A stretch of DNA of 64,000 nt, from the NCBI RefSeq assembly GCF_029213205.1, contig NZ_JARGNH010000001.1:372001-436000 (forward strand). The letters run 5' to 3'. The DNA is from Pseudooceanicola sp. Lineage in GTDB: Bacteria > Pseudomonadota > Alphaproteobacteria > Rhodobacterales > Rhodobacteraceae. This document shows, piece after piece, positions 14,184 through 34,557 of this stretch. Position numbers and translations under genes: made by a program. The notes under the pieces were generated by a model that did no database searches, had not been told where the DNA came from, and was given only the letters and a program-made list of their open reading frames with translations. Within the stretch, counting starts at the first letter, position 1. Each line of letters starts with the position of its first letter.

Positions 14184-14273
14184 GGAGAGGTGGCCGAGTG
14201 GTCGAAGGCGCACGCCTGGAAAGTGTGTAGGCGGGAGACCGTCTCCAGGGTTCGAATCCCTGTCTCTCCGCCA
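14184..14273 (+). tRNA. tRNA-Ser (anticodon GGA)
   Basis: Complete class II tRNA with a long variable arm, encoded CCA (14271-14273), the D-loop GTGGCCGAGTGGTCGAAGG and T-arm GGTTCGAATCC. The anticodon loop CTGGAAA gives anticodon GGA at 14218-14220, reading UCC/UCU. The acceptor stem GGAGAG pairs with CTCTCC. The first prophage sequences follow directly, so the tRNA marks the host side of the left junction. Confidence 0.95.
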
Positions 14274-14583
14274 CCCAGCCATTTGGGATCCTTCTCCAAA
14301 CGGGCTGCGGTCTAAAAAATCCCGTTATATTTGAAGGTTATAGCGCCAGCACGGTTTTGCGTAGGACGCTGTCAGGCCCCATCTTACCCTACCATCCCAC
14401 TCTCTCGCCCCAATATTCTCCGGACCTGTTGACCATGCATTTTTCAATACGGTTTCAATAACTTGCTGGAACTGAATCAAAAAAATGTCCCGCTTTTGGG
14501 GATTCAGACACAAGTCACGCGAACGGTCCCGGCGACTCGCATCTAAATCTTTGACCCCGCAGCGCTCATTTTGCTTTTGTGAA
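14274..14583. other. Non-coding interval containing the prophage left junction
   Basis: About 310 bases after the tRNA without a convincing gene. It is less GC-rich than the host DNA to the left. Open frames here carry no ribosome site and run into the terminator at 14586-14625. The attachment site (attL) of the serine recombinase should lie in this interval or at the tRNA 3' end, but the partner attR is outside the window, so the crossover cannot be placed. Confidence 0.5.
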
Positions 14584-14585
14584 AA

Positions 14586-14625
14586 TAAAAAAAGCCGTTC
14601 CAAATCATCGGATTGGAACGGCTTT
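14586..14625 (-). terminator. Intrinsic terminator of the integration/lysogeny operon
   Basis: A 13-bp perfect stem (14591-14603 with 14613-14625, core GCCGTTCC/GGAACGGC), 9-base loop, followed on the minus strand by a T-rich tract (14593 down to 14586). It lies 21 bases past the stop of the last gene of the minus-strand operon and reads in the correct direction to end it. Confidence 0.88.
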
Positions 14626-14646
14626 GTGGCAAGGGTGTGCCGAGCG

Positions 14647-15036
14647 CTAGCTGCCTTCATAGCCAAGCGCGGACCGCTGCTCGGCCCAAACCGGCGTCAT
14701 AGGATCGAGCAGCTCCGTCATGCCCACGGACGGTGGATTTCCGTCCAGGATCGCTTCGATGATGTCCGGTGCCAGCAAAGTGAGCCGCATGACGCGCGTC
14801 AGATATGATGGCGAGATCTTCTCGTACTCCGCCAATTCGGCGATCGTTCCCATATCGCCATCCTCAAGGATTTGGCGCCACCGATAGGCGCGGGCCACCG
14901 CCTTGATCAGCGTGTAGTCAGGGCTCCGATTGTTCGTACCGGGCGGAAGCTGCACCTCTTTCCGACCGCCGCGCTTGGCCACGCGGAATGGAATGGTGAC
15001 GGTCACGGTATCTGGGATAGTGGGTTTCTTGCTCAT
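14647..15036 (-). CDS. ParB/HTH-like prophage protein, recombinase-associated
   Basis: A 129-residue basic protein with a helix-turn-helix-like region around residues 64-90 (AELAEYEKISPSYLTRVMRL) that resembles the DNA-binding part of ParB/KorB-type proteins. Its ATG overlaps the recombinase stop (ATGA), so it is translationally coupled to the serine recombinase and is a candidate DNA-binding accessory factor for integration or excision. That role is inferred from position and the HTH only. Confidence 0.65.
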   Translation of the reverse strand: MSKKPTIPDTVTVTIPFRVAKRGGRKEVQLPPGTNNRSPDYTLIKAVARAYRWRQILEDGDMGTIAELAEYEKISPSYLTRVMRLTLLAPDIIEAILDGNPPSVGMTELLDPMTPVWAEQRSALGYEGS

Positions 15037-16349
15037 GCAGCGGCATCCTTATCTTCCGGGCTTTGCAGCAGTTCTTGGGCCAACTCCGTGAGCCCATCGA
15101 TACGCATCCGGACGCTGATGGCGTCGGTGCCAATGTCGACCCGCTTAACGGTCAGCGCGATGATACGTGTCTGCTCGGCCGGGAAGAGTTCATCCCAAAG
15201 CGGATCGAATTGCTGCAGAGCTATGCGCGCATCCTCGAGGGTGATGTCGCGACAATGGCTTTTCGCGGCGTCCCACGCACCGGCGATGATTTCGGGCTGG
15301 CGAAACACCGCACGGACCTGGTCGATCACGGCGGTCTCGATCTCACCGGCCGTGACGCGGCCAATCGGGCAGGATCCAGCGCCGTGCTTTAGGATCGACT
15401 GGCTGACATAGTAGCGATAAAGCTTGCCCCGCTTTCTCGTGTGGGTTGGTGAGAATGCCGCCCCATCGGGGCCGTAGATCAATCCCTTGAGCAGTGCTGG
15501 CGTCTCGGCGCGCGTATTCGCTGCCCGCTTATGTGGACTCTCCTGCAGGATGGTATGAACCTTGTCCCAGATAACGCGGTCAAGGATTGCCTCATGTTCC
15601 CCGGGATAGCTTTCGCCCTTGTGGACTGCTTCGCCGATATAGGCGCGGTTGTTCAGCAGCCGATAGAGGTACTTCTTATCGATCCGATTTCCATTTGGCG
15701 TTAAGAGCCCACGCTGATCGATTTGGTGCGCCAGTTCCGTCGCGGAGCCGATTTCCACGAAACGGCTGAAAATCCAACGAATATGCTCAGCCTTCTTCTC
15801 ATCGACTATGAGCTTGCGATTTTCGACGCGGTAACCGTAGGGCGGCACGCCGCCCATCCAGATGCCCTTCTTGCGGCTGGCGGAAAACTTGTCACGGATG
15901 CGTTCCGCGGTCACTTCACGTTCGAATTGCGCAAAAGACAACAGGATGTTGAGGGTCAAGCGCCCCATGGACGTCGTCGTGTTGAACTGCTGGGTAACGG
16001 ATACAAAGGTGACGCCGGTCCGGTCGAACACCTCAACCAGCTTTGCAAAGTCAGCCAGCGAGCGGCTGAGGCGGTCGATCTTGTAGACCACGACCACGTC
16101 AATCAAGCCGTCCTCGATGTCTTGCATCAGCGCTTTAAGGCCCGGCCGCTCCAGAGTGCCGCCGGACACACCGCCGTCATCATATTGGTCACGGAGCACC
16201 ACCCAGCCTTCAGACCGCTGACTGGCGATGTAGGCCTCGCAGGCTTCGCGCTGGGCATGGAGCGAGTTGAATTCCTGCTCGAGCCCTTCCTCGCTGGATT
16301 TGCGGGTGTAGATGGCGCAGCGCAGTTTGCGCAGGATTGGTTGGTTCAT
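15033..16349 (-). CDS. Serine recombinase / integrase
   Basis: A 438-residue recombinase of the resolvase/invertase superfamily with an N-terminal catalytic domain (YTRKSSEEG; catalytic Ser18 of the YxRxS motif; DRLSR arginines near 93-96), then a recombinase domain (KGIWMGGVPPYGYR) and a zinc-ribbon-like region. Long serine recombinases integrate phages by strand exchange with two-base overlaps. I start it at ATG 16349, which overlaps the DUF2924 stop; upstream in-frame sequence to 16457 is inside DUF2924. It is the only integrase visible for this prophage. Confidence 0.93.
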   Translation of the reverse strand: MNQPILRKLRCAIYTRKSSEEGLEQEFNSLHAQREACEAYIASQRSEGWVVLRDQYDDGGVSGGTLERPGLKALMQDIEDGLIDVVVVYKIDRLSRSLADFAKLVEVFDRTGVTFVSVTQQFNTTTSMGRLTLNILLSFAQFEREVTAERIRDKFSASRKKGIWMGGVPPYGYRVENRKLIVDEKKAEHIRWIFSRFVEIGSATELAHQIDQRGLLTPNGNRIDKKYLYRLLNNRAYIGEAVHKGESYPGEHEAILDRVIWDKVHTILQESPHKRAANTRAETPALLKGLIYGPDGAAFSPTHTRKRGKLYRYYVSQSILKHGAGSCPIGRVTAGEIETAVIDQVRAVFRQPEIIAGAWDAAKSHCRDITLEDARIALQQFDPLWDELFPAEQTRIIALTVKRVDIGTDAISVRMRIDGLTELAQELLQSPEDKDAAA

Positions 16350-16798
16350 GTCCGCCCCCGATAGTTCTTCAGGCCAAAGAAGACCCAGCCATTCCAGCGC
16401 GTGCCGGTGATGGCGCGGGCGATGGCGGACAGCGACTTGTACGGGCGCCCCTGCCATTCATACCCATCGACCGTCACCGTGACGAGATGCTCGACCCCCT
16501 GCCATTCGCGGAGCAGTCTTGTGCCCACGATCGGCTTGATATCGGCACGGATGCGACTTTTCAGGCGATCTCCGCCATCGAGCTCGTCGCCCAGCTTCGC
16601 CAGTCGTTTGAGGGTCTGGGGTTTCAGGCCACCATAGGTCAGTTCCTGAATGCGATAAGCCAGCCGGCTTTCCAGGTAACGCCGGTTGAAGGGCGGTGGC
16701 ATAGTGCCGAACAACTCGCGCCATTGTTTGCGCAAGGCCGGCGTTGGCGTGGTTTTCAACGCGGCGATGCGCGCGGGAATTGGATCATGCTTATTCAT
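16346..16798 (-). CDS. DUF2924 family protein, recombinase-linked
   Basis: A 150-residue protein with the DUF2924 hallmarks: LRKQWRELFGTMPPPFNRRYLESRLAYRIQ (beginning near residue 22) and a C-terminal TVTVDGYEWQGRPYKSLSAIA followed by TGTRWNGWVFFGL. DUF2924 genes are repeatedly found immediately before serine recombinases in alphaproteobacterial prophages, as here with ATGA overlap. The C-terminal portion resembles a small DNA-binding SH3/AP2-like fold, which is inference. Likely partner or directionality factor of the recombinase. Confidence 0.85.
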   Translation of the reverse strand: MNKHDPIPARIAALKTTPTPALRKQWRELFGTMPPPFNRRYLESRLAYRIQELTYGGLKPQTLKRLAKLGDELDGGDRLKSRIRADIKPIVGTRLLREWQGVEHLVTVTVDGYEWQGRPYKSLSAIARAITGTRWNGWVFFGLKNYRGRT

Positions 16799-18137: not shown

Positions 18138-20306
18138 CTATATCAGCCATTCATCGAGTTTCGACCAGCGCCGTCGCCCCGACACATTCTTGATTGCGAT
18201 CGCCACCGCCTTTTTCTGGCCAACCAAAACTACGAGTTTTTTGCCGCGCGTGACGCCGGTGTAGATCAGGTTACGCTGCAGCATGGCGTAATGCTGGGTC
18301 ATCACTGGGATGACCACGACGGGGTATTCGGAGCCCTGGCTCTTGTGGATGGTCGCGGCGTAGGCGGGCACCAGCGTGTCTAGTTCGCCGAAGACAAACG
18401 TGACGGTGCGACCGTCAAAATCCACCGCGACCTCGCCCTCATCAAGATCGACATCTTCGATCATGCCTATGTCGCCGTTATAGACGTCTTTGTCGTAATC
18501 GTTCTCGATCTGCATGACCTTGTCACCAGAGGCAAAGGTCCAACCGAAACGCTCCACTTTTTTCTCTCCGGCAGGATTCAGCGCGGCCTGCAGTTCTATG
18601 TTGAGGGAACGCGCGCCCACACCACCACGGTTCATAGGGCAGAGAACCTGGACATCCTTGATTGGATCGAACCCGAATTTGCGTGGGATGCGTTTGGCGA
18701 CGAGTTCCACAATGCGCGGCACAGCTTGTTCCGGATCGGCGGCCGGCACAAAATAGAAATCTGCATCGCCATCAGGGGGAGCCAGATCAGGCAGCCGGCC
18801 GGCGTTGATCGCGTGTGCGGTTGTGATGATCTGGCTCTTTGCGGCTTGCCTGAACACCTCTGTCAAGCGGACCACTGGAACAGCACCGGACTCGATAATG
18901 TCGGCCAGGACTTGACCGGGACCGACGGAGGGCAGTTGGTCAATGTCGCCCACAATCAAGAGCGCTGCATGGCTTGGAACGGCTTTCATCAACGATTGCA
19001 TGAGCAACACGTCGACCATGGAGCTTTCATCGACGACGAGCAGGTCGCACTCGAGCGGGTTTTCAAGGTCACGCTTGAACCCGAACGCCTTGGGGTCGAA
19101 CTCAAGAAGTCGGTGGATAGTCTTTGCCTCCATGCCCGTGGCCTCCGTCATCCGCTTGGCTGCACGGCCAGTAGGGGCGCAGAGCAACAGTTTTACGTGC
19201 TTCGCCGCGAGGATGCGCAAGATCGAGTTCACGATCGTGGTCTTGCCCACGCCTGGCCCGCCCGTGATCACCATGACCTTCGACTTCAGTGCCAGCCGGA
19301 CGGCCTCTGCTTGGCTTTCAGCAAGGGAAAGTCCTGTTTTCTGTTCGATCCATGGAAGCGCCTTGTCGGCATCGATATCTGGCCACGGTAGGCTGCCCGC
19401 GCAGATACGCTTTAGCTGCTCCGCAATGCCGCGCTCTGCCAGATAGAGGCCGGTCAGGAAAATGCAGTCCACGTCACCAACACAATCGGCTGTCACAGTT
19501 TCCTCAGCAAGTTCCTCGGCGAGCGCGCTTTCGATCAAAGGCGCCGGGACCTCGAGCAGTTTGCCCGCGAGGCCGATCAAGTCTGCGCGAGGGAGGCCAC
19601 AATGCCCATCGCCCATGGCCTCCGTCAACGCGAAGGAAATTCCCGCCCGGACCCGGATCATCGCCGTCTTCTCGATCCCAAGTTTCTCTGCGATCAAATC
19701 CGCCGTCCGAAACCCGATCCCTCGAATGTCTTTAGCGAGGCGGTAAGGGTTCTCGCTCATCACCTGGACGGCATCTGTGCCGTAGGTCTTGAAGATGCGC
19801 ACTGCACGTGCGGTTCCCACGCCATGTTCGTGCAGGAACACCATTATTTCGCGGATCACCTTTTGGTCTGCCCATCCGGCGGTGATTTTGTCGGCGCGTT
19901 TCGGGCCGATACCCTCCACTTCACGAAGGCGTTCTGGCTCAGCTTCGATGATGTCGAAGACGTCCTTCCCGAAAATTTTCACGAGGCGCTTGGCGTAGAC
20001 GGGTCCAATGCCGCGGATCATGCCGGAGCCGAGGTATTTCTCAATGCCGTCCAGAGTGGACGGTGCATGCGTTTTCAGGAAGTGTGCCTTGAACTGAAGG
20101 CCGTGGTTGCGATCATTGATCCAGGTGCCGGAGGCCGTGACCCACTCACCGGCAGAAATCATTGCTGCATGCCCCACAGTCGTGACGAGATCACGATGGC
20201 CACGCGCTTTGACGCGCAGAACGCAGAACCCGCTCTCCGTACTGTGGAAGGTTACGCGTTCCACCAGGCCAGCAAGGACCTCAGTCGTGCCCGCCCCATC
20301 GTTCAC
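18138..20306 (-). CDS. RecD2-like ATP-dependent DNA helicase
   Basis: A 722-residue SF1B helicase. It has an N-terminal OB-like domain, two helix-hairpin-helix repeats (IRGIGPVYAKRLV near 98 and VEGIGPKRADKITAG near 130), Walker A GGPGVGKTT at about residues 349-357, Walker B LLVVDESSMVD near 430, and C-terminal UvrD-like motifs (AYAATIHKSQGSEYP). This is the RecD2/TraA-type architecture without RecBC partners: 5'-3' DNA unwinding. Position inside the repressor operon, overlapping the preceding gene by ATGA, means it is expressed with the lysogeny genes rather than the lytic replication genes. Confidence 0.92.
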   Translation of the reverse strand: MNDGAGTTEVLAGLVERVTFHSTESGFCVLRVKARGHRDLVTTVGHAAMISAGEWVTASGTWINDRNHGLQFKAHFLKTHAPSTLDGIEKYLGSGMIRGIGPVYAKRLVKIFGKDVFDIIEAEPERLREVEGIGPKRADKITAGWADQKVIREIMVFLHEHGVGTARAVRIFKTYGTDAVQVMSENPYRLAKDIRGIGFRTADLIAEKLGIEKTAMIRVRAGISFALTEAMGDGHCGLPRADLIGLAGKLLEVPAPLIESALAEELAEETVTADCVGDVDCIFLTGLYLAERGIAEQLKRICAGSLPWPDIDADKALPWIEQKTGLSLAESQAEAVRLALKSKVMVITGGPGVGKTTIVNSILRILAAKHVKLLLCAPTGRAAKRMTEATGMEAKTIHRLLEFDPKAFGFKRDLENPLECDLLVVDESSMVDVLLMQSLMKAVPSHAALLIVGDIDQLPSVGPGQVLADIIESGAVPVVRLTEVFRQAAKSQIITTAHAINAGRLPDLAPPDGDADFYFVPAADPEQAVPRIVELVAKRIPRKFGFDPIKDVQVLCPMNRGGVGARSLNIELQAALNPAGEKKVERFGWTFASGDKVMQIENDYDKDVYNGDIGMIEDVDLDEGEVAVDFDGRTVTFVFGELDTLVPAYAATIHKSQGSEYPVVVIPVMTQHYAMLQRNLIYTGVTRGKKLVVLVGQKKAVAIAIKNVSGRRRWSKLDEWLI

Positions 20307-28286: not shown

Positions 28287-29053
28287 CCCTCGACTTCAAT
28301 CACAAACCCAGCTTCGCAGAACGCGTGAACGACGCCGTCGATAGCGCCCTCATCGCTGAAAACGCCACTCGGACACCACGTGACTATCTTGGCGGATCCC
28401 GCCTTGGCCATGCCTGTGAACGGGCCCTGCAGTTCGAGTTCACGGCCACGCCGAAGGACGATGGCCAGGATTTTTCAGGCCAGGTTCTGCGCATTTTCGC
28501 CATTGGTCACGAGTTGGAGGAGCTTGCCATCCGCTGGCTGCGCGGTGCGGGGTTCGATCTCTACACCCAAAAGGGCAACCGACCCGATGGCGGCCAGTTC
28601 GGGTTCGAAGTCGCGGGCGGTCGCATACGGGGCCATGTCGATGGCATAATCGCCGCTGGCCCCGAGGGCTTTGGTCTCGCCGTTCCTGCTCTCTGGGAAT
28701 GCAAGACGATGAACGCCAAGAACTGGCGTGCCTGCGTCAAGGACGGTGTTGCGAAATCAAAGCCCGTCTACGCCGCCCAGATCGCCGTCTATCAGGCCTA
28801 TATGGAGGCGCAGGTGCCGGGGATTTCCGCGAACCCGGCCGTGTTCACCGCGATCAACAAAGATACGGCTGAGCTTTACCACGAGCTTGTGCCCTTCGAT
28901 GCCGAGCTGGCGCAGCGCATGTCCGATCGCGGGGTGCGCATCCTGCGCGCCACGGATGCGGGCGAGTTGCTGCCCCGCGTCGCCGCCAATCGCGACTTCT
29001 TCGAATGCCGGTTCTGCTCCTGGGCTGAGCGCTGTTGGGGCCTGCCGACATGA
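28283..29053 (+). CDS. Cas4/RecB-like PD-(D/E)XK exonuclease
   Basis: A 256-residue nuclease with Asp120 (GHVDGII), Glu139-x-Lys141 (WECKTMN) and Gln166 followed by Tyr170 (QIAVYQAYM), i.e. PD-(D/E)XK motifs II-IV. Cys45 (GHAC) plus Cys242, Cys245 and Cys251 (ECRFCSWAERC) have the spacing C-n-C-x2-C-x5-C of the iron-sulfur cluster in Cas4 and AddB. This predicts a DNA exonuclease making ends for the Sak4-like recombinase. Coupled by ATGA overlaps on both sides. Confidence 0.88.
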   Translation: MTLDFNHKPSFAERVNDAVDSALIAENATRTPRDYLGGSRLGHACERALQFEFTATPKDDGQDFSGQVLRIFAIGHELEELAIRWLRGAGFDLYTQKGNRPDGGQFGFEVAGGRIRGHVDGIIAAGPEGFGLAVPALWECKTMNAKNWRACVKDGVAKSKPVYAAQIAVYQAYMEAQVPGISANPAVFTAINKDTAELYHELVPFDAELAQRMSDRGVRILRATDAGELLPRVAANRDFFECRFCSWAERCWGLPT

Positions 29054-31440
29054 CGGACGCCCCGAAGGACCCGCCCAAAAACGACGACACAGCGAAGGAT
29101 GCCGCAATGGCTCACGATCATGATGACCGCCCAGAGACGCCGGAGCCATCGAAGGAAAACCTTATCCATTTCAACCCATGGCGGGATTTCAATGACGCGA
29201 CGCCCATGGAGGATGTGTTTGGCGACGAGCCAGATCCAGAACAGATCGGCCAGTTCATGGAGGTGGTCTTTGGCTATTGCGACGGGCTGATCCCGGTCCG
29301 GAGCTTCATCGACAAGGGCCAGGGCATCGATGGCCGCCCCCATAACATCTGGATCAAGGCCAGCGGTGCTGTCACCGAAAAGATGGCGACCTTTGCCAAT
29401 TGGGCCTCGCGCGAGGGCGCCGCGGTCTATGTGATCCCTGGCACTGTTGCCACCAGCGGCCAGGCCAAGGCGGCCGACATCCTGCAAATGCAGACTGTGG
29501 TGGTCGACATCGACACAGGTGATATCGCCGCCAAGCGTGCCCACCTGGAGCGACACCTCGGCCCGCCGACAATGGTCGTGGAAAGCGGTGGCATCACGCC
29601 AGAGGGCCAGCGCAAGGCCCATGTCTGGTGGAAACTCACGGAGCCCGCCGAAGGCAGTGACATTGCGCGCGTGACGCGCCTGCGGGGCGATATTGCCGCC
29701 AAGGTCGGGGGCGACATGCATTTCCGCTCCGCCCACCAGCCGATCCGGGTGGCAGGCTCGGTCTATTACAAAAACAGCCTGAAGACCCAGGTTCAGATCG
29801 TGGAGTTAAACGCTGACCGCGAGCGCGATCTGGCCGAGTTCATCGAGGCCGTGGCCGACATGCCACCCGCCCCGGGCGTGAATCTCGCGCCGGACTTCAC
29901 CACGCCGGACAAACCACGTACCGATGAGGTGCTGGTCACGCCGGTGCGCGAGGGCGGTCAGGATGACTGGTCGCGCTTCGAGGGCGCCTCAGCCGCCATC
30001 GGTTACTTCATTCGCATGGTGCACGACGGCCGCCTCTCGAAGGATGAGGGTTGGGAGGCGATCTGCGGCTACAACGCGGCGATGCTGCGCCCCCAGTGGC
30101 CGGTGGAACGGCTCAAGCGCGAGTCCGAACGCCTCTGGGCCCTCCATGTCGAAAAGCATGGCCCTCCTGTCATCAGGCTCGACAGCGCAGCACCTGCCCC
30201 TGACGAAATGCCCACCTTCACCCTTGGCGCGCTCTTGGATGACACGAGCCCCATGCCGGCGGATATCATCGCGCCGCGCGTACTGACGCCTGGCGGGCTC
30301 TTGGTGCTGGGCGGCGCACCCAAGGTGGGCAAGAGTGACCTGCTGATCTCCTGGCTCGTGCACATGGCCGCTGGCCAGCCCTTCCTCGGCTTCACGCCGC
30401 CGCGGGCGCTGCGCATCTTCTATCTGCAGGCGGAGATCCAGTATCATTACCTGCGCGAGCGGATGAAGCAGATCAGCCTGCCACCGAAGGTTCTGGCCGG
30501 CGCGCGAGACAATCTGGTGGCAACACCAAAGCTGAATCTTCTGCTCGATGCTGAGGGCAGTGTCCGTGTGGCCGATGCTATTCGCCGGTCCTTTTTAGAT
30601 GCGCCGGTTGACATCATTTGCATCGACCCGATCCGGAACCTCTTTGATGGCGGTCCCGAGGGCGGTGGCGAAAACGACAACAGCGCAATGATGTTTTTCC
30701 TGAAGGACCGGGTCGAGGTTCTGCGCGATCACATCAATCCGGACTGCGGTGTCATTCTCGCTCACCACACGAAGAAGCTCAGCAAACAGCAGGTGAAAGA
30801 CGACCCGTTTCTGGCGCTCTCCGGCGCCAGCGCCCTGCGTGGGTTCTACACCTCCGGCTTGATCTTGCACCGCCCCGACGAGGAAAGCCCTCAGCGCAAG
30901 CTGGAGATTGAACTGCGCAATGGTCCGGCCTTGGCCGCCAAACTGATCGACAAGGTCAAGGGCGAATGGGTTGAGATCAACCCGATGAACGAGCGGCTTG
31001 TGCGGGCTGAGATGGGCGCGAGGCAAGATGCTGAACGCGACCGAAAGCGCGACGTCATCCTGGCAATTCTCTTGGCCGAAGCCGCCAATGGCAACCTTTA
31101 TACTTCGACCCAGTTTCGCGAAAAATTTGAGAACCAGCTCGGGCTTGGTAGCCAGTCGACTATTCGTGACCGGATCAATGTGCTGACCACGAAAGGGTAC
31201 ATCCGTTTCGTGCGTGACGGCACGCCCTTTGGCCACCCAATCGTGCGCTCACGGTTCGGGTATCTCTGCGTCGAGGGCATGATTTTCGGCGGCGAGGATC
31301 GCGTCGATCCAGACACGGGCGAAGTTCTTTCGGGGACGAAACCGGTCCTGCCAAGCCACTACAAATCGCCGTCAAACGGCATCTGTCTCGAGGTCGATGA
31401 CCCCGCAGAATGGCCAATCACGGAGGATGAAAATGACTGA
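29050..31440 (+). CDS. Primase-polymerase / RepA-like helicase fusion
   Basis: A 796-residue two-part protein. The N-terminal part (about 60-270) has prim-pol features: Asp153-x-Asp155 in VVVDIDTGD and His191 in AHVWWKL, as in RepB-type primases. The C-terminal part (about 385-650) is a RecA-fold hexameric helicase with Walker A GGAPKVGKS at 421-429 and Walker B VDIICIDPI. A winged-helix-like tail follows. Such fusions start and unwind plasmid and phage origins. The ATG 29050 overlaps the exonuclease stop. The repeat field downstream may be its origin. Confidence 0.85.
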   Translation: MTDAPKDPPKNDDTAKDAAMAHDHDDRPETPEPSKENLIHFNPWRDFNDATPMEDVFGDEPDPEQIGQFMEVVFGYCDGLIPVRSFIDKGQGIDGRPHNIWIKASGAVTEKMATFANWASREGAAVYVIPGTVATSGQAKAADILQMQTVVVDIDTGDIAAKRAHLERHLGPPTMVVESGGITPEGQRKAHVWWKLTEPAEGSDIARVTRLRGDIAAKVGGDMHFRSAHQPIRVAGSVYYKNSLKTQVQIVELNADRERDLAEFIEAVADMPPAPGVNLAPDFTTPDKPRTDEVLVTPVREGGQDDWSRFEGASAAIGYFIRMVHDGRLSKDEGWEAICGYNAAMLRPQWPVERLKRESERLWALHVEKHGPPVIRLDSAAPAPDEMPTFTLGALLDDTSPMPADIIAPRVLTPGGLLVLGGAPKVGKSDLLISWLVHMAAGQPFLGFTPPRALRIFYLQAEIQYHYLRERMKQISLPPKVLAGARDNLVATPKLNLLLDAEGSVRVADAIRRSFLDAPVDIICIDPIRNLFDGGPEGGGENDNSAMMFFLKDRVEVLRDHINPDCGVILAHHTKKLSKQQVKDDPFLALSGASALRGFYTSGLILHRPDEESPQRKLEIELRNGPALAAKLIDKVKGEWVEINPMNERLVRAEMGARQDAERDRKRDVILAILLAEAANGNLYTSTQFREKFENQLGLGSQSTIRDRINVLTTKGYIRFVRDGTPFGHPIVRSRFGYLCVEGMIFGGEDRVDPDTGEVLSGTKPVLPSHYKSPSNGICLEVDDPAEWPITEDEND

Positions 31441-31458
31441 TTTTTTCACCCCTGCGCG

Positions 31459-31631
31459 TTGTTCGTCCTCAGGACAAACATGTTCGACCTCCGACGTTGT
31501 TCGTCCTGAAGTCAATAAAATCAATGGCTTGACTGAGGTCGAGGACAAACATGTCTGTCCTCTTGTTCGACCTCTGTTTGTCCTGAAAATGAAAGCAATT
31601 GCAATGAGTTACCTGAAAATGAGGACGAACA
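31459..31631. repeat. Iteron-like field of TGTTYGWCCT repeats in both orientations
   Basis: Eight close copies of a 10-base word (TGTTYG[TA]CCT) occur in 172 bases. Plus-strand copies start at 31460, 31481, 31498, 31564 and 31575; reverse copies (AGGACAAACA or AGGACGAACA) start at 31471, 31542 and 31622. A weaker copy (TGTCTGTCCT) is at 31552. The first pair makes an imperfect palindrome around 31470. The field begins 18 bases after the primase-helicase stop. Iterons beside a replication-protein gene are typical of origins; here this is inferred. Confidence 0.7.
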
Positions 31632-31651
31632 ATGGAAGCCTATATATTATA

Positions 31652-31688
31652 TATAGGGAGGCGGACCTGTCCGTCCCGCCTCCCTATA
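31652..31688. repeat. Long perfect hairpin next to an AT tract
   Basis: Arms 31652-31664 and 31676-31688 form a 13-bp perfect stem (TATAGGGAGGCGG and its complement) with an 11-base loop. It directly follows an alternating A/T tract (31641-31655) and the iteron field. No T-run follows on either side, so it is not a standard terminator. Candidate unwinding or initiation structure of an origin. Confidence 0.6.
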
Positions 31689-31752
31689 CCAAGATAATAT
31701 CCGCGCGTAGCTCTCGACTGTGGTCATTTCCGAAGCCGATCGGAGGTGCCCA

Positions 31753-32079
31753 ATGACGATCACACAACGGGTCGTGCATACAATCGACTTCGACGTGGTT
31801 CCAATGCCGGGCACTGCACTCCTGCACGAAGGGCAACGCTATGTGGTGACCGGGTCCGACCTGCACCGCCGCAAGGATGGTGAGCTCGTCCCAATCATTT
31901 ACTGGCAAAGCCACTGCGCGGAATGCGGCGCACCGTTCGAATGTTGGAGCGGCATGCGGTCTGGCACACTGAACCGCCGGTGCCGCCTGCACCACGCGCC
32001 GGGCAAGGCTGTCACTGCAGCCGGCAAGAAGCACGCTTCCAATCACCTGCGCAAATACGGCACGCGCCGGAAACGCTGA
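31753..32079 (+). CDS. Small cysteine-containing phage protein
   Basis: A 108-residue protein starting at ATG 31753 after GGAGGTGCCC. The motif CAECGAPFECWS followed by RRCRLHH suggests a zinc-binding site, and the C-terminus is strongly basic (GTRRKR), so it may bind nucleic acid. It is the first gene after the iteron and hairpin region. No family recognised. Confidence 0.6.
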   Translation: MTITQRVVHTIDFDVVPMPGTALLHEGQRYVVTGSDLHRRKDGELVPIIYWQSHCAECGAPFECWSGMRSGTLNRRCRLHHAPGKAVTAAGKKHASNHLRKYGTRRKR

Positions 32080-32169
32080 CAGACCATCCGACGACGGCGG
32101 CCCGCACCGCCAAGCACATGACCACCGTCGTCTTCCACCCGAGCAGCCCACCAGAAAAGGAGACCACCC

Positions 32170-32706
32170 ATGGCTGACCTGACTCTCGCCAGCGCCAATC
32201 CCGGCGCAACCCCGAAAATGCCGTTACCGGGAGAACCGAACCAAACGATCCTCGCCCTCGATCTGGGCACCACGACCGGCTGGGCCATCCGAGGCTTCGA
32301 CGGACTGATCACAAGCGGCACCGTCAGCTTCAAGCCGGGCCGATACGACGGCGGCGGCATGCGCTACCTGCGGTTCACCAACTGGCTGACCGAGATCGAT
32401 CGCCTGTCGGGTCCGATTGAGGCGATCTACTTCGAAGAGGTCCGTCGCCATGCCGGAACCGATGCGGCACACGTCTTTGGCGGCCTCATGGCCAGCTTGA
32501 CCAGCTGGGCTGAGTTGCGGGGCATCCCGTATCAGGGTGTCCCGGTAGGCACGATCAAGAAACACGCAACCGGAAAGGGTAACGCGCCGAAACAGGCGAT
32601 GATTGACGCTGCTCGGGCGCGTGGCTTCAACCCGACCGACGACAACGAGGCTGATGCCATCGCCATCCTGCATTGGGCAATTGAAACGAATGGAGGTTTG
32701 GCATGA
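32170..32706 (+). CDS. RuvC-like Holliday-junction resolvase
   Basis: A 178-residue RNase H-fold nuclease. Catalytic acidic positions are visible in LALDLGTTTGWAI (first Asp), YFEEV (Glu) and TDDNEADAIA (C-terminal Asp pair), the layout of RuvC and phage crossover-junction endonucleases. It should resolve recombination intermediates before packaging, complementing the upstream recombinase, nuclease and helicase genes. Ribosome site AAGGAG precedes ATG 32170. Confidence 0.85.
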   Translation: MADLTLASANPGATPKMPLPGEPNQTILALDLGTTTGWAIRGFDGLITSGTVSFKPGRYDGGGMRYLRFTNWLTEIDRLSGPIEAIYFEEVRRHAGTDAAHVFGGLMASLTSWAELRGIPYQGVPVGTIKKHATGKGNAPKQAMIDAARARGFNPTDDNEADAIAILHWAIETNGGLA

Positions 32707-33943: not shown

Positions 33944-34168
33944 ATGTTCGAAACCCGCATCCGCAAAGTCGGCAACTCAGCCGTGGTTACGCTGTCGGCT
34001 GAGATGCTGGCAGCGCTTGATGCCCGCGAAGGGGACACAGTCTACCTAGTGCGTGGCGACGATGGCAGCCTGAAGATCACGCTGCAGAACCCTGAGTTGG
34101 CCGCAGCTCTCGCTGCAGCGCAAATCGTCATGGACGAAAACCGTGACATGCTGCAGGCGCTTGCGTGA
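33944..34168 (+). CDS. AbrB/MazE-fold antitoxin of a Doc-type toxin
   Basis: A 74-residue SpoVT/AbrB-type DNA-binding protein (RKVGNSAVVTLSAEML, REGDTVYLVRGDDGSLKI) of the Doc-partner antitoxin family. The C-terminal helix (AAQIVMDENRDMLQALA) probably wraps the toxin active site. GAGGAGG precedes the start. It overlaps the toxin start by four bases, the usual antitoxin-first coupling. Confidence 0.85.
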   Translation: MFETRIRKVGNSAVVTLSAEMLAALDAREGDTVYLVRGDDGSLKITLQNPELAAALAAAQIVMDENRDMLQALA

Positions 34169-34557
34169 GCGAGCCGGTATGGGTGCCGTTGCAGGCGGTT
34201 CTGATCATCCATGATCGCCAAATCGCGCGCCACGGTGGTGCGTCAGGCATGCGCGACATCCAGCTTCTCGAGGCCGCGATGGAGCGTCCCCGCAACAAGG
34301 CGGTCTATGGCGAGCCGAGCCTTGAGGAAATTGCCGCGGCTTATGCGTTTGGGATTGCGAAGGCGCATGCCTTTGTTGATGGCAACAAGAGGACAGCCTT
34401 TGTCACGTCCGCCACGTTTCTGCGTTTGAATGGCTTCGGCTTGCGCCCAGACCCGCTAGACGGCGTGAGGTCAATGGAGGACTTGGCCTCCGGCGTGATT
34501 TCCGAAGAAACCTTCGCAGCTTGGCTTTCGAAGTTGATGATCCCTGTCGCCGGTTGA
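34165..34557 (+). CDS. doc: Doc/Fic-family toxin
   Basis: A 130-residue Fic-fold kinase of the Doc family with the signature HAFVDGNKRTAF (HxFx[D/N]GNKR). Doc of phage P1 phosphorylates EF-Tu and arrests translation; here the catalytic His and Lys/Arg are intact, so it should be active. It uses GTG 34165, overlapping the antitoxin stop. In a prophage it probably stabilises the element or blocks superinfecting phages. Confidence 0.9.
   Translation: MSEPVWVPLQAVLIIHDRQIARHGGASGMRDIQLLEAAMERPRNKAVYGEPSLEEIAAAYAFGIAKAHAFVDGNKRTAFVTSATFLRLNGFGLRPDPLDGVRSMEDLASGVISEETFAAWLSKLMIPVAG

What the first reader, a model, noticed from the sequence alone, without database searches (positions are those of the whole stretch)
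31459..31688. Iteron field plus hairpin: candidate phage replication origin
The sequence shows at least eight copies of TGTTYG[TA]CCT in both orientations within 172 bases, then an alternating A/T tract and a 13-bp perfect hairpin, all directly after a prim-pol/helicase fusion. Iterons next to a replication protein plus an AT-rich unwinding tract are established origin architecture; the assignment as origin is inference. Alternating orientation is less usual than direct repeats and could reflect a dimer-binding site for the fusion protein's N-terminal part.
Basis: partly seen in the sequence, partly recalled or inferred. Interest (0 to 1): 0.75.

Follow-up and report, generated by a model that had tools for sequence, protein, structure and literature searches.

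The report
Swappable phage replication origin cassette
The repeats next to a prophage's primase-helicase gene look like its replication start site, and in relatives the repeat letters change together with the protein's DNA-reading domain while the layout is largely kept, giving a natural table of which residue goes with which base.

Summary
All 8 exact TGTTYGWCCT sites of the 64-kb window lie in 31460-31631 (0.34 expected), just 3' of an 801-aa fusion that resembles, in one chain, the RSF1010 RepB' primase and RepA helicase plus a winged helix.

Comparison with 388 fetched loci (213 unique) supports an origin and changes the picture. The window's repeat class occurs in 19 of 213 by rule, 22 with three hand-placed variants. 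The others fall into 15 further classes in the same place, with site positions largely kept where tested. Class-linked divergence is confined to about the last 130 residues of Rep; the primase-helicase body and the downstream RuvC show almost none. Single winged-helix residues track single repeat bases, e.g. type II base 4 G/A with residue 738 R versus K/N/Q, 78 of 78 loci. Type I loci carry an IHF-consensus site (74 of 84).

Binding and replication are inferred. Filed as a new variant of a known kind.

The parts
29035..31440 (+). Rep: AEP primase + RepA-type helicase + winged helix in one 801-aa chain (an ATG at 29050 is an alternative start)
   Evidence: ORF; AAA_25 E 8e-20; Foldseek hits 6zp9, 3h25/3h20 (RepB'), 1olo/1g8y (RepA)
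29233..29814 (+). AEP primase domain, about residues 67-260
   Evidence: model, Foldseek; D158, D160, H196 invariant in 84 sequences; reading these as AEP motifs is recalled knowledge
30238..30954 (+). RecA/RepA-type helicase core, about residues 402-640
   Evidence: PF13481 at 402-582, 1olo E 8e-4, invariant K433 S434. Much of this part of the model has pLDDT under 50
31015..31284 (+). C-terminal winged helix (about 661-750): helix 691-698, recognition helix 707-719, wing about 727-742
   Evidence: models (the latter pLDDT 86.4); class-linked divergence
31460..31469 (+). iteron 1
31471..31480 (-). iteron 2
31481..31490 (+). iteron 3
31498..31507 (+). iteron 4
31519..31531 (+). IHF-consensus site AATCAATGGCTTG
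   Evidence: exact WATCAANNNNTTR (consensus recalled)
31542..31551 (-). iteron 5
31552..31561 (+). degenerate iteron, 1 mismatch
31564..31573 (+). iteron 6
31575..31584 (+). iteron 7
31622..31631 (-). iteron 8, set apart from the main group
   Evidence: such a distant last site is listed in the class A and C loci shown and in part of class B
31639..31657 (.). A/T palindrome; its left arm (CCTATA) can also pair with the left arm of the next hairpin
31652..31688 (.). 13-bp perfect hairpin, possible primase start site or regulatory element
   Evidence: no terminator match here
31433..31756 (+). open frame across the whole array (107 aa); its ATG lies 8 nt before the end of rep and its stop overlaps an ATG at 31753
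   Evidence: relatives; no family match
32170..32706 (+). RuvC-like resolvase, conserved right neighbour
   Evidence: phrog_159 E 7e-32; found in 195 of 213 loci

Best explanation
The segment is the replication origin of a temperate phage. The C-terminal winged helix of the Rep fusion binds the mixed-orientation 10-bp repeats (inferred). IHF bends the spacer between the repeat groups (inferred from a consensus site). The RepA-type domain then opens the DNA, and the RepB'-like primase starts synthesis nearby, perhaps at the hairpin (weakest step, analogy only). About the last 130 codons of rep plus the array, and probably the hairpin, behave as an exchangeable specificity cassette between a constant primase-helicase body and a constant ruvC (shown by comparison). 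Within it, bases of the repeat co-vary with residues of the winged helix, several of them in the recognition helix and wing (shown as association; direct contact inferred).
For: Exact 8-mer repeats beyond shuffles (p<=0.01) in the first 260 nt after rep in 171 of 213 unique loci, against 1 of 179 control stretches. Same layout, different letters: type II classes average 5.0-9.0 of 10 modal sites against 1.6 at random; type I classes A, B, C average 7.3-7.6 of an 8-site series against 2.1 (largest 6) at random. Same-class minus different-class identity is 0.00-0.06 per 25-residue block over Rep 1-675 and 0.00-0.05 over RuvC, but 0.18-0.28 over Rep 676-800 (127 loci after dereplication at 95%, unassigned ones left out; 117 with RuvC). 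Residue-base tables: II-4 G with R738 64/64, A with K/N/Q 14/14; II-8 C with K/R707 10/10 and none of the 65 A or T loci; II-9 G with A707 8/8; I-2 G with V737 33/33, T with T737 50/50. Max-statistic p is 0.003 (II-4) and 0.010 (II-8, II-9, I-2); for II-9 the single best column is 708, beside 707. Exact IHF consensus in 74 of 84 type I loci, control 0 of 69. RepB' and RepA folds. The Wolbachia phage WOVitB homologue has repeats and an exact IHF consensus right after repA.
Against: No replication or binding data. Rep's 3' end and the array are adjacent, so part of the association could be linkage. 26 of 213 loci do not reach p<=0.05 for exact repeats, at least 15 of them class D. In the layout test class E averages 5.2 and X has 6, not above the random maximum of 6; classes D, N and O were not in it. 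IHF consensus is weak in type II (14/78 exact) and III (6/51). Not every base position has a significant partner: I-5 p 0.17, II-2 p 0.19, II-3 p 0.15, II-10 p 0.29, I-6 0.05, I-7 0.06; at II-10 an N-terminal column (0.60) even beats the best winged-helix one (0.53). For II-6 and II-7 the best columns (777, 747) lie outside the recognition helix and wing. Class E breaks the I-5/692 rule. The permutations ignore relatedness and are not corrected over the 12 positions tested.
Confidence: 0.82

Rival explanations
1. The array is a transcriptional operator: Rep (or another repressor) binds it to control the downstream ruvC operon or rep itself, and replication starts elsewhere.
For: Inverted repeats are typical of operators (recalled). 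A minus-strand promoter-like match lies at 31673-31646 (1 found, 0.2 expected). Iteron proteins often also autoregulate (recalled).
Against: The array is 3' of rep, not upstream; no exact copy lies elsewhere in the window; no plus-strand promoter match in 31300-32300. Eight sites with largely fixed geometry plus an IHF site is more than an operator needs. The co-varying domain belongs to a primase-helicase.
Confidence: 0.1
2. The association of winged helix and repeat class is only physical linkage: recombination moves the 3' end of rep and the next few hundred bases together, without direct recognition.
For: The two elements are adjacent; every winged-helix block is class-linked; at II-10 an N-terminal column scores higher than any winged-helix column.
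Against: The boundary falls before the winged helix (gap 0.02 at 626-650, 0.06 at 651-675, 0.22 at 676-700) and the association is almost gone in RuvC on the other side. Particular residues track particular bases across different classes (R738 in F, G, H, L, P versus K/N/Q in I, J, K), and at the six positions with p<=0.01 the best N-terminal column (0.28-0.53) is weaker than the best winged-helix one (0.63-0.80).
Confidence: 0.07
3. The sequence is selected mainly as a translated leader: ribosomes run from rep through the array to the next gene, and the hairpin acts as an attenuator or RNA element.
For: A frame (chosen per class) opening at the end of rep is stop-free for 300 nt in 165 of 213 loci (summed from the fractions; 5-11% expected per frame). 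In 98 of 178 it runs in frame into ruvC. In the window it ends on an ATG.
Against: Class B (0 of 20), P (0 of 2) and X (0 of 1) have no such frame but keep arrays. Substitutions are nearly flat over codon positions, e.g. class A 0.081/0.077/0.086, though third positions are somewhat higher in F and N. This explains the open frame but not repeats that track a DNA-binding domain; it may coexist with an origin.
Confidence: 0.15
4. The array is a partition or recombination site rather than an origin.
For: Such sites also use repeats and IHF (recalled).
Against: The co-varying partner is the winged helix of a primase-helicase, and the integrase is a serine recombinase at 15033-16457, far away. I did not search specifically for parA/parB.
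Confidence: 0.03

Closest known systems
SaPI / PICI rep-ori module
   Same: Origin of repeats directly 3' of the initiator gene; the C-terminal domain of the helicase recognises it (PMC7581432 passages); two iteron sets flank an AT-rich region in E. coli PICIs (PMC6092414 passages).
   Different: Here the helicase match is AAA_25/RepA-type, with no DUF927 or D5 match, and the element carries terminase, portal, capsid and tail genes. [quoted passage not shown]
RSF1010 (IncQ) RepA/RepB'/RepC with ssiA/ssiB
   Same: Same primase and helicase folds; iterons plus nearby hairpins (PMC4234260 section 18 part 1, PMC4538821 passages).
   Different: Three functions in one polypeptide; short mixed-orientation repeats; whether the hairpin is a primase site is untested.
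Phage P4 alpha protein and ori
   Same: One chain with primase, helicase and a winged helix that binds origin repeats (PMC4234260 section 18 part 1).
   Different: P4 has a Toprim primase (same source); here an AEP. P4 repeat details are recalled only.
PLE RepA / ori of Vibrio satellites
   Same: DNA-binding domain and origin co-vary and are swapped as a module while the rest of RepA is conserved (PMC8263062 passages).
   Different: RepA_N protein not predicted to be helicase or primase (PMC7145576 passages), two groups; here 16 classes and residue-base tables.
pRN1 ORF904 and phage BIP-1
   Same: AEP + helicase + C-terminal winged helix with the origin just downstream (PMC4234260 abstract, passages, section 18 part 1).
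   Different: SF3 helicase; origin is a stem-loop without iterons.
Lambda O / ori
   Same: Iterons read by the initiator, inside a translated region (PMC7466680 passages).
   Different: Here the array lies after the initiator gene, and the initiator carries its own primase and helicase domains.

Membership tests
Iteron-type replication origin | Cluster of short repeats beside a replication initiator gene | tested here: met
Iteron-type replication origin | Initiator binds the repeats | not testable with these tools
   Only co-variation is available
Iteron-type replication origin | Autonomous replication of the segment | not testable with these tools
   bench work needed
Iteron-type replication origin | AT-rich unwinding element | tested here: inconclusive
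Over the array the mean AT fraction per 20 nt is about 0.51-0.55 in type I against 0.31-0.44 at its sides; type II has peaks of 0.62 and 0.70
SaPI/PICI module | Origin repeats directly 3' of rep | tested here: met
SaPI/PICI module | DUF927 or D5-type (Primase_Cterm) helicase | tested here: not met
   Pfam gives AAA_25 only
SaPI/PICI module | Satellite that depends on a helper's virion genes (recalled) | tested here: not met
   terminase, portal, capsid, tail genes present
RSF1010 (IncQ) replicon | RepB'-like AEP and RepA-like helicase | tested here: met
RSF1010 (IncQ) replicon | Three separate proteins | tested here: not met
   single 801-aa ORF
RSF1010 (IncQ) replicon | ssi hairpins used by the primase | tested here: inconclusive
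   A hairpin is present; ssi sequences were not compared
P4 alpha family | Toprim primase | tested here: not met
   AEP fold, no Toprim match
PrimQH-type AEP fusion (PMC5862659 passages) | AEP + RepA-type ATPase + C-terminal winged helix | tested here: met
   The all3500 and InversePrim families also have AEP-RepA fusions, so this alone does not decide
PrimQH-type AEP fusion (PMC5862659 passages) | Primase-domain signature of that family | not tested
   no profile of it was at hand

The most novel reading that the evidence does not exclude
One phage family has diversified its origin into 16 repeat classes (29 distinct 10-bp consensus strings in types I and II, 23 of them fully determined) by swapping a winged-helix-plus-array cassette. 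Within it a largely additive residue-to-base recognition code for a replication initiator can be read from sequence, so that a phage's origin specificity could be predicted from its protein.
Probability: 0.5. Interest if true: 0.78.

Novelty: new variant of a known kind. Interest (0 to 1): 0.62.

Why it matters
How initiators choose their origins is usually known one pair at a time. Here a large natural set largely keeps the geometry and changes the letters, so the code can be tested with binding assays on existing proteins. It also gives a testable origin for a Wolbachia phage WO (WOVitB): the 12 passages I saw in one WO genomics paper that concern an origin of replication speak of the bacterial chromosome's, and none of the 12 titles listed by my search is about a WO origin. 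It raises the question of what drives the diversification: cross-interference, or origin-directed nucleases as in PLE (PMC8263062 passages).

Tried and rejected

Dropped before counts: of 388 loci, 1 had no match at the cut-off, 5 no stop, 6 internal stops, 155 identical, 8 short downstream. Class M had one locus, which fell out there. Repeat classes were seeded by eye from the DNA, and 18 loci were placed by hand.

What I say is not in print rests on searches in one open library only; of the papers found I saw listings, passages, and one section part.

Full report
What is there. The window holds what looks like a near-complete temperate prophage: tRNA-Ser at 14184, a large serine integrase, an S24-type repressor, terminase, portal, capsid and tail genes. 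Its closest genome relatives are mostly Rhodobacteraceae by record title. The rep gene 29035-31440 is followed by the reported repeats. All eight exact TGTTYGWCCT matches of the window lie in 31460-31631 against 0.34 expected, and no other cluster is seen among the 75 matches in the assembly. The hairpin is exact, and the stretch around it folds better as DNA than 200 of 200 shuffles.

Relatives. Four viral scans and one genome scan kept 80 loci each, out of 588-599 and 334 confirmed relatives. From 388 loci, 376 gave usable proteins and 213 were unique with at least 280 nt downstream. In 295 genomes of the family, 43 had a match at E<=0.001, including partial and weak ones.

The array is conserved, the letters are not. 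The window's repeat class is found in 19 of 213 loci by rule, 22 with three hand-placed variants. Exact 8-mer repeats beyond shuffles (p<=0.01) occur in 171 of 213 loci after rep, against 1 of 179 control stretches; 26 of 213 miss p<=0.05, at least 15 of them class D. Sixteen classes were named from the DNA alone. Where tested, positions are largely kept: type II classes average 5.0-9.0 of 10 modal sites (random 1.6), type I classes A, B and C average 7.3-7.6 of 8, E 5.2 and X 6 (random 2.1, largest 6). Classes D, N and O were not in that test; D shows mainly two copies of a palindrome.

The cassette. Comparing same-class with different-class pairs (127 loci), identity differs by 0.00-0.06 over Rep 1-675 and by 0.00-0.05 over RuvC (117 loci), but by 0.18-0.28 over Rep 676-800 (an earlier set of 98 gave the same picture for Rep). 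The exchanged unit is therefore the winged helix plus the array, flanked by constant genes.

Residue and base. In common register, type II base 4 is G with R738 in 64 of 64 and A with K, N or Q in 14 of 14; base 8 is C in 10 loci, all with K or R707, which occur in none of the 65 A or T loci (3 undetermined have Q); base 9 is G in 8 loci, all with A707, which occurs with no other base there. In type I, base 2 is G with V737 (33 of 33), T with T737 (50 of 50), and A with V in one locus. With distinct 10-mers as units (13 and 16, six containing an undetermined base), max-statistic p values over 140 columns are 0.003 for II-4, II-6 and II-7, 0.010 for I-2, II-8 and II-9 (best column there 708), 0.05-0.06 for I-6 and I-7, and 0.15-0.29 for I-5, II-2, II-3 and II-10. 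For II-6 and II-7 the best columns (777, 747) are outside the recognition helix and wing, though 715 and 718 also track II-6. The p values ignore relatedness and are not corrected over 12 positions, so the code is a strong lead, not a proof.

Other elements. The exact IHF consensus is in 74 of 84 type I loci, mostly at three offsets (+33, +57, +78; control 0 of 69), in 14 of 78 type II and 6 of 51 type III loci (controls 0 of 62 and 0 of 49); with one mismatch 82/84, 53/78 and 19/51 (controls 0/69, 3/62, 2/49). The TATATAT tract is in 2 of 84 type I loci. A three-part palindrome follows the array in many loci (57 of 84 type I, 36 of 76 type II; type III not countable this way), rarely in shuffles or controls; in the window it has no terminator match. 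I read it as a possible primase site by analogy with ssiA/ssiB (PMC4538821 passages; PMC4234260 section 18 part 1), with low confidence.

An unexpected open frame. A frame starting around the end of rep is free of stops for 300 nt in 165 of 213 loci (summed from the class fractions; the frame was chosen per class; 5-11% expected per frame). It reaches ruvC in frame in 98 of 178. Classes B, P and X lack it. Codon-phase substitution is nearly flat, so the peptide seems not to be selected; keeping ribosomes moving through an origin is one idea, untested.

Further afield. Only Wolbachia phage records matched Rep in the phage collection (9 of 50,697); in the plasmid collection four records matched. 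WOVitB has repeats and an exact IHF consensus right after repA (p 0.003); AcaML1 has repeats between its primase gene and a RuvC-like gene; Shinella, a close relative, has the class O repeat; Eleftheria is weak (p 0.013); WOVitA2 and WOMel show none.

Known kinds. SaPI and PICI origins, P4, RSF1010, pRN1, lambda and PLE each share part of this. PLE already shows a DNA-binding domain and origin swapped as a module. In the passages I saw, none describes this many specificities on one conserved layout with residue-base tables. I call it a new variant of a known kind. Binding, unwinding, priming and replication were not tested.

Noticed in passing
window 31433-31756: Open frame of 107 aa across the whole array, with GGAGG upstream of its ATG and a stop overlapping an ATG at 31753; relatives keep such a frame in 165 of 213 loci.
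   Followed up: partly
L389:5382-5640 (phage WOVitB): Repeats, an exact IHF consensus and a TA-rich palindrome right after repA: candidate origin of a Wolbachia phage WO.
   Followed up: partly
L394:6214-6355 (phage AcaML1): CCGTCAGAC-type repeats between the primase gene and a RuvC-like gene although the C-terminus of the primase does not look alike.
   Followed up: no
L391:4251-4565 (Eleftheria plasmid): A few AGTTGGC repeats and a similar three-part palindrome before a RuvC-like reading frame, beside a 56% identical helicase and C-terminal part.
   Followed up: no
window 31673-31646, minus strand: Promoter-like match lying on the A/T palindrome, pointing into the array.
   Followed up: no
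window 14184-16457: Large serine integrase near tRNA-Ser, where G+C content also drops; likely integration site.
   Followed up: no
window 34165-34557: Doc-like toxin family match (phrog_577) in the early region.
   Followed up: no
window 18138-20306, minus strand: RecD2-like helicase (exonuclease V family) inside the prophage.
   Followed up: no
genomes with two such prophages: Eight pairs with arrays picked by eye; same repeat class in two, so no sign that co-resident prophages must differ.
   Followed up: partly
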